From Oscillospiraceae bacterium (GTDB lineage Bacteria; Bacillota; Clostridia; Oscillospirales; Oscillospiraceae), in the NCBI GenBank assembly GCA_022799035.1, contig JAAWNQ010000002.1, forward strand, positions 1 through 64,000: a stretch of DNA of 64,000 nt, in the 5' to 3' direction. Positions 56,277-58,622 of this stretch are shown here, one piece after another. Position 1 is the stretch's first letter; each line of letters begins with the position of its first letter. Under the pieces are notes generated by a model. That model was not told the origin of the DNA. It was given only the letters and a program-made list of their open reading frames with translations, and did no database searches. Position numbers and translations under genes: made by a program.

Positions 56277-56531
56277 CTATTTCAGGCTGTCGCTGAACTC
56301 CCGCAGCTCTGCCTGCTTCTCCTTTGGCAGGCAGTTGTATTCGGTTTGGGTGACGGCCCCCTCAAGGCAGTAGAGGTGGACCAGGCAGACCTTGGGATAG
56401 AGGGCCTTCAACCTTCGGTAGGCCTCTTTGGCCCCCACCGCCATCAGCTCTTCGGCGCAGTGGATCCCTACGGAGCGGAGCTTCCGGTCCATCTCTTTTC
56501 CCAGATTCATCATGCTTGCCAGCTCTGCCAT
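56277..56531 (-). CDS. TfoX C-terminal-domain protein
   Basis: This 84-aa protein is a lone TfoX_C domain (PF04994): MNLGKEMDRKLRSVGIHCAE, ELMAVGAKEAYRRLKALYP and VCLVHLYCLEGA. Full TfoX drives competence in some bacteria; the lone domain is common in Firmicutes with unknown role. AGGAGG precedes the ATG and it starts 12 bp after the MFS gene, so they share a transcript. Confidence 0.88.
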   Translation of the reverse strand: MAELASMMNLGKEMDRKLRSVGIHCAEELMAVGAKEAYRRLKALYPKVCLVHLYCLEGAVTQTEYNCLPKEKQAELREFSDSLK

Positions 56532-56543
56532 GGCCTTTCCTCC

Positions 56544-57701
56544 TTATCTTCTTTCCTCTCCCCCGCTCATCCGGCCCATCAGTCCCAGGGAGGCCAGACT
56601 CAGGGCCCCGCCCAGCAGGAAGGCGGCGGGGAGACTTATCTCGGACAGGCAGCCCAGAAGGAAGGTGGCCGAAATGGTCACGCCGTTGAGCAGCACCGCC
56701 TGGGCGCTGAGGGCGGTGGCCCGGTCCTCCGTCTTGACGCTCCGGTTCTGGATGGTGGCCTGCAGAGGCTGGTACAGGTTGAAGCCCACCCGGAACAGGG
56801 CCACCGCCAGCACCGAGAGGATCATACTTCCCGTCAGGGCCAGGGTAAGGCAGCACAGGGCCGAGAGCAGGGGCAGCAGGATCAGGGCACGCCGTTCCCC
56901 GATCCTCTCCGTCAGCCGGGCGGAATACCCTCCCAACAGGCCGCACAGGGTCATAAAAGCGTAGGCCGCCCCCATGGCGGCGGCGGACATGCCCAGCCGC
57001 TGATACTGGGCCTGGCTGTAAAAGACGGTGACCATCTGCTGGGCCGCGCCCAAAAGGGCGGCGCCGGAGAGAAACAGCAGGAGTCTTCTCTGGCCCAGGG
57101 TCTCCCGGAGGATCCTCCCAAAGCGGGTCAGGGCCTCCCGCCCCCCGCGGCGGTCGGGGGAGCGCACCTCCCGGAGGCCCAGGGACAGTATGGCCGCGGT
57201 GGCGTAGCTCACCGCCGTGAGAAGCCCTGCCAGACGGTAGTTCTCCCCAATCAGGAAGGTGTAGACCCCTGTGGCCGCCAGCAGGCCCAGGATGGTCATG
57301 TTATTGTAAACCCCAAACACACGGTGGGCCTCCCCCTCCGGGCAGGACAGGTACAGGATCCCCGTGTCAATGCCGGAGAGGCCGGCGGCCACCACCCCCA
57401 GCAGGATCCGCTCCAGGAGGAAGCCCCCAAAGCCGGCGGCCCGCCAGAAGATCAGCTTGGTGACAAAGTACAGCCCGGAGCACAGAACCATGGTCCGCCG
57501 GTAGCCCAGCCGCTCCGCCAGAAGGCCCCAGGGAAGCTCCAGGGCCACCGCCAGGGTCAGGCAGACCCCCTCCATAAGGGCGATCTGGCCCAGGCCCACC
57601 CCCACCGCCTGACGGTAGAGGGTGGCGATGGGGCCGTAGAACACCATGCCCTGGAGAAGGGCCATGGCGTATAAAATGCCAATATTCCTTTTTTCAGGCA
57701 T
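56544..57701 (-). CDS. Major facilitator superfamily transporter
   Basis: This 385-aa protein has about eleven to twelve membrane helices and MFS marks: the loop 2-3 motif GLLAERLGYRRTMV and a helix rich in Gly (GLSGIDTGILYL). It looks like a drug- or metabolite-efflux type. Its ATG at 57701 is directly preceded by a very long leader hairpin whose 3' arm holds the ribosome site and a T5 run. Substrate unknown. Confidence 0.88.
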   Translation of the reverse strand: MPEKRNIGILYAMALLQGMVFYGPIATLYRQAVGVGLGQIALMEGVCLTLAVALELPWGLLAERLGYRRTMVLCSGLYFVTKLIFWRAAGFGGFLLERILLGVVAAGLSGIDTGILYLSCPEGEAHRVFGVYNNMTILGLLAATGVYTFLIGENYRLAGLLTAVSYATAAILSLGLREVRSPDRRGGREALTRFGRILRETLGQRRLLLFLSGAALLGAAQQMVTVFYSQAQYQRLGMSAAAMGAAYAFMTLCGLLGGYSARLTERIGERRALILLPLLSALCCLTLALTGSMILSVLAVALFRVGFNLYQPLQATIQNRSVKTEDRATALSAQAVLLNGVTISATFLLGCLSEISLPAAFLLGGALSLASLGLMGRMSGGEERR

Positions 57702-57801
57702 AAAAATACCGTCCCTTTCCTTGAATTCAACATAGCCATCGGACGCTCCGGAGGAGCGTCTGTGATCCGGGCTATGGGCGATGAATTCAAATGGGACGGT
57801 A
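57702..57801 (-). promoter_or_regulatory. Very large leader hairpin in front of the MFS gene
   Basis: Four stacked helices form one long structure: TACCGTCCC/GGGACGGTA (57707-57715, 57793-57801), TTGAATTCA/TGAATTCAA (57721-57729, 57782-57790), CATAGCC/GGCTATG (57731-57737, 57770-57776) and GACGCTCC/GGAGCGTC (57742-57749, 57753-57760). On the minus strand the last arm ends in TTTTT right at the ATG and covers the AAGGAAAGGG ribosome site. It could stop transcription, block translation or both. I know no family that matches. Confidence 0.7.
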
Positions 57802-57834
57802 CATAAAGCATATCTCCTTTTTGTGGATGGCTTT

Positions 57835-57864
57835 ACCTTATCATAGAGAGCGGCCCCTTGTCAA
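57835..57864 (-). promoter_or_regulatory. Promoter of the MFS-tfoX-C pair
   Basis: A perfect TTGACA (57859-57864) and TAAGGT (57835-57840) on the minus strand are 18 bp apart. Transcription would start about 30 bp before the hairpin. Confidence 0.55.
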
Positions 57865-57866
57865 GC

Positions 57867-58622
57867 TCACCGGTGCTTCCAGGCCGTCCACAGCATGGGG
57901 GCGAAGAAGCCCAGGCAGAAGAAAAGGGTCAGGATCAGCATCGCCATGGAGGGCAGAAAGGCCCGCCCCACCCAGAAGACGGGCGGCCAGAGGACCGAGG
58001 TTCCCAGGAGCCACCCCCGGCCCACCTTGATGATATGGGGCCAGTTGCTGTTGTTGATGGGGATCATCCCCAGGTTCATGCGAAAAAAGCGGTCGGAGTA
58101 GACGTAAACTTTATTCTCATCATAATAGGCGGGCAGAATCTCCTTGGCAAAAAAGCAGAAGTAAGCCCCAAAGCCCAGGGTCAGGCCCTCCACCAGAAGG
58201 AGGAAATCCCACAGCTCCACCGCGGAAAGCTGGTTCCCGGCGATGAGGGCCGTGGTCTCCAACGCCGCCAGAGCGGCGCAGACCACCCAGGCCTTCCGCC
58301 AAAAGCGGCTCTTTTTTGCCCTTCTTCCCCGCTCCTCCTCAGAGAGCTGAACGGCTTTATTGACAAGGTCTTTTACTTCACTGTTTTCCAGGGTCTCCCC
58401 CGTCAGCCGCTCCCCCTTGAGAAGCTCGGCCACACTGACCTCCAGGAGCTGGGCCAGAGGGGTCAAAAGGCTGATATCCGGAAGGCTCTGGCCCCGCTCC
58501 CACTTGCTCACCGCCTTGTTGGAGACAAAGAGCCTGTCGGCCACCTCCTGTTGTGTAAAGCCTTTCTCCTTGCGAAGTTGTAATAAAAAGGCGCCAAACT
58601 TTTCCCGGTCTATGGATTCCAT
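57867..58622 (-). CDS. Membrane-anchored XRE-type helix-turn-helix protein
   Basis: This 251-aa protein has an N-terminal XRE helix-turn-helix (FGAFLLQLRKEKGFTQQEVA, then NKAVSKWERGQSLPD) and a C-terminal part with about four membrane helices after residue 110. Such membrane-bound HTH proteins are common in Firmicutes; some act as local repressors that respond to envelope signals. Its target is unknown. The MFS gene follows it. Confidence 0.85.
   Translation of the reverse strand: MESIDREKFGAFLLQLRKEKGFTQQEVADRLFVSNKAVSKWERGQSLPDISLLTPLAQLLEVSVAELLKGERLTGETLENSEVKDLVNKAVQLSEEERGRRAKKSRFWRKAWVVCAALAALETTALIAGNQLSAVELWDFLLLVEGLTLGFGAYFCFFAKEILPAYYDENKVYVYSDRFFRMNLGMIPINNSNWPHIIKVGRGWLLGTSVLWPPVFWVGRAFLPSMAMLILTLFFCLGFFAPMLWTAWKHR

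What the first reader, a model, noticed from the sequence alone, without database searches (positions are those of the whole stretch)
57702..57864. A roughly 95-nt four-helix hairpin sits between promoter and start of an MFS transporter gene
The arms (9+9+7+8 bp) match almost perfectly; the outer arm ends in a T5 run and covers the ribosome site. A transcript from the promoter at 57835-57864 must pass through it. This is the shape of an attenuator or RNA switch that opens under some signal, perhaps a compound the transporter exports. I know no RNA family that fits.
Basis: partly seen in the sequence, partly recalled or inferred. Interest (0 to 1): 0.6.

Follow-up and report, generated by a model that had tools for sequence, protein, structure and literature searches.

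The report
Five-codon leader peptide controls efflux pump
The hairpin is real and is half of a ribosome-operated switch: a tiny five-codon gene (Met-Tyr-Arg-Pro-Ile-stop) is written into one strand of the hairpin that hides the ribosome site of a membrane-pump gene, and the same mini-gene, always ending in proline plus one more residue, stands before this pump in about 90 other gut Clostridia and relatives, which suggests the pump is switched on when something stalls ribosomes.

Summary
The hairpin (57706-57802, minus strand) is real: -57.1 kcal/mol for 57690-57840, z -6.6. The same SD-led mini-ORF ending Pro-x-stop lies upstream of this MFS pump in 81 of 105 homologous loci; dinucleotide shuffles give 0.7, at most 4. 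It survives at least 25 changes among the four Pro codons and 17 among the three stop codons, so the peptide itself is under selection. The uORF pairs with the pump's SD: the helix covaries (82% paired, slid controls 28-51%, 0 of 500 shuffles), and a simulated ribosome on the uORF raises exposure of the SD core from 0.10 to 0.49, against 0.13 for a control mask.

Best explanation: a ribosome-mediated translation attenuator, like those of ermC, cat, vmlR and cplR, with a leader-peptide class (M-x-x-P-[I/T]-stop) that I found in no held paper and not in Rfam. A stalled ribosome opens the hairpin and the pump is made. Stalling, and a ribosome-targeting drug as its cause (possibly a macrolide-like xPx staller), are inferred. 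It is not a riboswitch, terminator or mobile repeat.

The parts
57859..57864 (-). -35-like TTGACA; the -10 region 17 nt on is poor (ATAAGG)
   Evidence: Sequence; scan finds no full sigma-70 match; better promoters in relatives read
57814..57819 (-). SD1 (AAGGAG) of the leader ORF, not in the hairpin
   Evidence: Sequence; unpaired from P1-P4 in the fold; pattern SD+MxxP[I/T]stop is unique in the 2.27 Mb genome
57787..57804 (-). Leader ORF ATG TAC CGT CCC ATT TGA = MYRPI*
   Evidence: Conserved as SD-led P-x-stop uORF in 81/105 loci vs 0.7 in shuffles; >=25 Pro-codon and 17 stop-codon changes on the tree
57793..57802 (-). 5' strand of P1 (GUACCGUCCC), overlaps leader codons 1-4; anti-SD
   Evidence: Fold; covariation; P(Pro-codon CC pairs with SD GG) 0.9998 here
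57706..57715 (-). 3' strand of P1 (GGGACGGUAU), contains the core of SD2
   Evidence: Fold, covariation
57782..57791 (-). 5' strand of P2 (UUUGAAUUCA), holds the last bases of the Ile codon and the leader stop codon
   Evidence: Fold; weaker covariation
57720..57729 (-). 3' strand of P2 (UGAAUUCAAG)
   Evidence: Fold
57731..57776 (-). Upper hairpin P3/P4 (CAUAGCC/GGCUAUG and GACGCUCC/GGAGCGUC); shape kept, sequence not
   Evidence: Fold; different sequences but same place in L017, L018
57712..57718 (-). SD2 (AAAGGGA) of the MFS gene, sequestered by P1
   Evidence: Sequence; SD core unpaired 0.0002 free, 0.70 with ribosome at leader stop codon
56544..57701 (-). MFS transporter, 385 aa (start ATG 57701), the regulated gene
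   Evidence: Pfam MFS_1 3.5e-33; N-terminus conserved in homologues

Best explanation
This is a ribosome-mediated translation attenuator. The transcript starts upstream of SD1. Ribosomes translate a five-codon leader ORF (MYRPI*), finish and leave quickly, and the RNA folds so that the leader codons CGU CCC base-pair with the SD of the MFS gene, which keeps the pump off. [quoted passage not shown] The inducer is most likely a ribosome-targeting inhibitor that the pump exports. Shown here: the ORF, its conservation at peptide level, the anti-SD pairing and its covariation. Inferred: stalling, induction, the identity of the inducer, and the pump's substrate.
For: Orthologue leaders at 94% and 76% protein identity keep MYRPI*/MKNRPI* and a hairpin of different sequence. 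SD-led uORF ending P-x-stop: 81/105 loci against 0.7 in shuffles, and the -2 residue of any SD-led 5-8 codon uORF is Pro in 75 of 82 loci. In 68 non-redundant leaders: Pro codons CCC33/CCG19/CCA13/CCT3; last residue Ile39/Thr21/Ser3/Val2/other3; stops TGA40/TAA20/TAG8; length 5 codons in 52. On a protein tree there are at least 25 Pro-codon, 17 stop-codon and 17 last-residue changes. The uORF:SD2 helix P1 is 82% paired against 28-51% when slid, with 45 compensatory cells against 21 in shuffles, 0/500 reaching; the antiparallel diagonal is the best of all. Folded one by one, 41 of 66 leaders pair the Pro-codon CC with the SD GG at P>0.5; a ribosome mask on the uORF raises SD-core exposure 0.10 to 0.49, control mask 0.13. 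The motif is unique in the own genome, and in 400 family genomes the hits outside MFS leaders that I examined fall inside genes or have no matching leader. Out-of-sample check: a Roseburia plasmid homologue has AAAGGA..ATG AAT CGT CCC ATT TAA = MNRPI* before the pump, unannotated. Precedents: msrDL (MYLIFM, arrested at the stop codon by macrolides; PMC10314930), vmlR uORF MIN (PMC9226507), cplR uORF MR[I/M] in Clostridia (PMC10201436), and xPx as a macrolide stalling motif (PMC13410324, PMC13148051).
Against: No expression, ribosome-profiling or drug data. Part of the Pro conservation could come from anti-SD pairing (UCC with GGA), although G-U wobble variants would be allowed by pairing and occur only in L090 (MNNLI*) and L109 (MSGSI*). 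A sister clade of the pump (L036, L038-L041) lacks Pro-x-stop and has other short uORFs, so the peptide is not needed for every member. No antibiotic-resistance assignment exists for this MFS family: best NCBIfam score is far below its cut-off, and there are no close solved structures. P2 covariation is weak (56% paired). Promoter in the window is weak by consensus.
Confidence: 0.78

Rival explanations
1. Translation attenuator in which stalling at the START of the leader ORF (tetracycline, lincosamide, pleuromutilin type) is the signal and the peptide sequence matters little; Pro-x-stop reflects only the anti-SD sequence UCCNA read in a frame with a stop.
For: A ribosome at the leader start codon frees SD2 as well as one at the stop (0.51 vs 0.49). 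Three-codon uORFs of vmlR and cplR work this way; [quoted passage not shown]
Against: The first base of the last codon is A in most leaders though it lies in the internal loop; Pro is kept through 25 or more synonymous changes; the start moves (5, 6, 8, 12-13 codons) while Pro-x-stop stays.
Confidence: 0.3
2. Metabolite-binding riboswitch for a compound exported by the pump.
For: Stable structured leader with SD sequestration before an exporter.
Against: No Rfam match; helices P2-P4 and loops differ completely between orthologues; the only conserved sequence is SD1, the mini-ORF and SD2.
Confidence: 0.04
3. Transcription attenuator: the long hairpin plus T5 is an intrinsic terminator, and the leader ribosome prevents it.
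For: T5 after the outer arm here; a sister clade (L036, L038-L041) has GC hairpin + T5 directly after its short uORF (sequences); known systems combine both modes.
Against: Terminator scan finds none on this strand; T-run broken in L017; the pairing that covaries is anti-SD.
Confidence: 0.1
4. Palindromic mobile repeat (MITE or REP) inserted between the SD and the gene; TACCGTCCC...GGGACGGTA would be its inverted repeats and TTTATG its target duplication.
For: Near-perfect ends and a TTTATG direct repeat flank the hairpin (sequence).
Against: Single copy in the genome, no DNA relatives in 400 family genomes beyond short chance matches, and orthologues have a homologous leader, not an empty site.
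Confidence: 0.01

Closest known systems
cplR leader of Clostridioides difficile (ABC-F; uORF MR[I/M]; PMC10201436)
   Same: Very short SD-led uORF, anti-SD pairing, class Clostridia, translational attenuation shown with reporters there
   Different: Regulated gene is an ABC-F, not an MFS pump; 3-codon uORF without Pro; it also has an intrinsic terminator; stalled by drugs with little sequence preference
vmlR leader of Bacillus subtilis (uORF MIN; PMC9226507)
   Same: Short uORF and SD-sequestering hairpin
   Different: Several stem-loops, antiterminator switch, terminator, different peptide and gene
msrDL (MYLIFM) in mefA/msrD elements (PMC10314930)
   Same: Hexapeptide leader, arrest at its own stop codon, resistance gene downstream
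   Different: Transcription attenuation, no Pro, UAA favoured; here all three stops are used
Classical translation attenuators ermC and cat-86, and tet(L) leader regulation (own knowledge)
   Same: Leader ORF overlaps the strand that sequesters the main SD
   Different: Longer leader peptides (9-20 aa) and other stalling motifs
toiL-topAI of Escherichia coli (PMC12121999)
   Same: uORF within an SD-occluding structure that responds to several inhibitor classes
   Different: Longer uORF, toxin-antitoxin target, Rho-linked

Membership tests
uORF-based translation attenuator | Short ORF with its own SD in the leader, between promoter and gene | tested here: met
   MYRPI* with AAGGAG; unique in genome; 81/105 homologous loci vs 0.7 expected
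uORF-based translation attenuator | uORF strand pairs with and hides the main gene's SD | tested here: met
   Fold, covariation 0/500 shuffles, P>0.5 in 41/66 single-sequence folds
uORF-based translation attenuator | A ribosome halted on the uORF exposes the SD | tested here: met
   In silico only: 0.10 to 0.49 exposure vs 0.13 control
uORF-based translation attenuator | Leader is translated and ribosomes stall in response to an inducer | not testable with these tools
   Needs toeprinting, Ribo-seq or reporters
cplR / vmlR / msrDL leader families | Their leader peptide consensus (MR[I/M], MIN, MYLIFM) | tested here: not met
   Consensus here is M-x-x-P-[I/T]-stop; literature consensus
Known RNA families (Rfam 15), riboswitches | Match to a family model | tested here: not met
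Intrinsic terminator | GC stem followed by conserved U-run | tested here: not met
   No site on this strand; U-run interrupted in L017
MITE / REP | Multiple copies, empty sites in relatives | tested here: not met

The most novel reading that the evidence does not exclude
M-x-x-Pro-[Ile/Thr]-stop is a new minimal arrest-peptide class: five residues suffice to make ribosomes sense a specific tunnel- or PTC-binding compound met by gut Clostridia, and the associated MFS subfamily is a widespread, unrecognised inducible pump for that compound.
Probability: 0.4. Interest if true: 0.8.

Novelty: new variant of a known kind. Interest (0 to 1): 0.62.

Why it matters
It turns an anonymous hairpin into a testable regulatory system found in many gut Clostridia (Oscillospiraceae, Lachnospiraceae), in Erysipelotrichaceae, Collinsella, Desulfosporosinus and on a Roseburia plasmid. 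In known systems of this architecture the downstream gene defends against the drug that stalls the leader, so the leader peptide gives a direct handle on the substrate of an uncharacterised pump family. A five-residue leader whose only fixed letters are Pro-[Ile/Thr]-stop would be among the shortest context-dependent sensors of ribosome inhibitors.

Tried and rejected
Mobile repeat (MITE/REP): rejected by copy number and by orthologues. The pattern TACCGTCCC..GGGACGGTA in viral contigs gave 5 loci that I did not pursue. Riboswitch: no Rfam match. Terminator. Looked for the same leader before other genes (ABC-F, methyltransferases) in 400 genomes: the hits examined lie inside genes or have no such leader; hits without a fetched locus were only partly checked. 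Genomic neighbours of the pump are not conserved (kinase, glycosyltransferase-like, deaminase, zinc transporter...), so context does not reveal the substrate. PDB and family libraries give only generic MFS matches. Literature searches for the peptide strings found nothing relevant. First accessibility test, using a 5-nt SD that included loop bases, was diluted; repeated with the GGA core. One of the 68 leaders (L109) was picked on a likely wrong uORF; it is left out of the covariation, folding and tree counts but not of the codon table.

Full report
WHAT IS THERE. On the minus strand the RNA of 57690-57840 has an MFE of -57.1 kcal/mol, z -6.6, none of 200 shuffles as stable. The arms are P1 10 bp, P2 10 bp, P3 7 (+3) bp and P4 8 bp. 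The outer 3' arm holds AAAGGGA, the Shine-Dalgarno of the MFS gene whose start codon is at 57701 (385 aa, Pfam MFS_1 3.5e-33).

WHAT WAS MISSED. Directly before the hairpin is a second SD, AAGGAG (57814-57819). It is followed by ATG TAC CGT CCC ATT TGA (57804-57787), a five-codon ORF, MYRPI*. Its codons 1-4 form the 5' strand of P1, and the last bases of its Ile codon plus its stop codon lie in P2. The codons CGU CCC are the anti-SD.

CONSERVATION. In the two nearest orthologues, G401 (94% protein identity) and G337 (76%), the leader is homologous but the hairpin is rewritten: MYRPI* and MKNRPI*, with compensating arms. A family search and a scan of one genome per species gave 105 loci with a usable upstream sequence. 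In 81 of these an SD-led uORF of 5-13 codons ends in Pro-x-stop; dinucleotide shuffles give 0.7 on average and 4 at most. If Pro is not asked for, the residue at -2 in SD-led 5-8 codon uORFs is Pro in 75 of 82 loci. In 68 non-redundant leaders the Pro codon is CCC 33, CCG 19, CCA 13, CCT 3; the last residue is Ile 39, Thr 21, Ser 3, Val 2 and His, Leu, Phe one each; the stop is TGA 40, TAA 20, TAG 8; and 52 are exactly five codons long. On a tree of the pumps this needs at least 25 changes of Pro codon, 17 of stop codon and 17 of the last residue. Synonymous freedom of this kind argues for selection on the peptide. A Roseburia plasmid outside the sample shows MNRPI* in the expected place, with no CDS annotated there in that gene table. 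In the window's own genome the SD + MxxP[I/T]stop pattern occurs once, here. In 400 family genomes the hits outside pump leaders that I examined lie inside genes or lack such a leader.

PAIRING. With the 5' block anchored on the stop codon and the 3' block on the SD, and no use of structure, the antiparallel register that pairs NNU-CC with GGA-NN scores best of all diagonals. P1 is paired in 82% of cells against 28-51% when slid; compensatory cells number 45 against 21 in shuffles; 0 of 500 shuffles reach either value. These shuffles do not keep relatedness; the slid controls do. P2 (end of the last codon plus stop codon against UCAGA) is weaker, at 56%. Folded singly, 41 of 66 leaders pair the Pro-codon CC with the SD GG at P>0.5. 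Masking the ribosome footprint at the leader stop codon raises exposure of the SD core from 0.10 to 0.49 (own leader 0.0002 to 0.70), against 0.13 for an equal mask in the upper hairpin. A mask at the start codon or the Pro codon does as much (0.51, 0.52), so folding alone cannot tell where the ribosome must stop.

MECHANISM. The arrangement is that of translation attenuators such as ermC and cat (own knowledge) and of recent short-uORF systems: vmlR MIN (PMC9226507), cplR MR[I/M] (PMC10201436), msrDL MYLIFM, arrested at its stop codon by macrolides (PMC10314930), and toiL (PMC12121999). [quoted passage not shown] xPx is a reported macrolide stalling motif, which makes macrolide-like tunnel ligands a reasonable first guess but no more. 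All three stop codons are used, so the signal is not tied to one release factor. That the pump exports the inducer is inferred from the analogous systems.

AGAINST. Nothing here shows translation, stalling or induction. Pairing of UCC with GGA explains part of the Pro conservation. A sister clade of the pump uses other mini-ORFs (MALLA*, MKSLS*, MKLSA*, MAFRS*, MSFDLN*) followed by terminator-like hairpins (sequences), so regulatory mode and peptide have changed in the family. Gene neighbours are not conserved and give no hint of substrate.

VERDICT. Real and more interesting than reported: a new leader-peptide class within a known kind of regulation, found in many species and, as far as the held papers and Rfam show, undescribed.

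Noticed in passing
L036, L038, L039, L040, L041 (leaders upstream of the pump): Sister clade of the pump carries other SD-led 5-6 codon uORFs (MSFDLN*, MALLA*, MKSLS*, MKLSA*, MAFRS*) directly followed by a GC hairpin CCACGG..CCGTGG with a T5 tail, i.e. a terminator-like version.
   Followed up: partly
L073, L079, L089, L097: One lineage has longer leaders (12-13 codons, e.g. MNNHSISNLNNPT*, MKTHSFFNPYNPT*) that still end in Asn/Asp-Pro-Thr-TAG with codons CCC ACG TAG.
   Followed up: partly
L169:2375-2392: Roseburia sp. 831b plasmid (NZ_CP135163.1) carries a 48% identical pump with the leader MNRPI*, not listed as a CDS.
   Followed up: yes
window 57867-58622 (-): HTH_3 regulator with a membrane-like C-terminal part directly upstream of the pump; homologous DNA also lies upstream of the pump in G401, G337 and G405 (L017-L019).
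   Followed up: no
window 56277-56531 (-): Stand-alone TfoX C-terminal domain protein (84 aa) right after the pump gene.
   Followed up: no
L161 (G226:C3:79211-79239): SD + MPTPI* mini-ORF in an intergenic-looking place with no ORF over 80 aa in the next 200 nt; function unknown, may be chance.
   Followed up: partly
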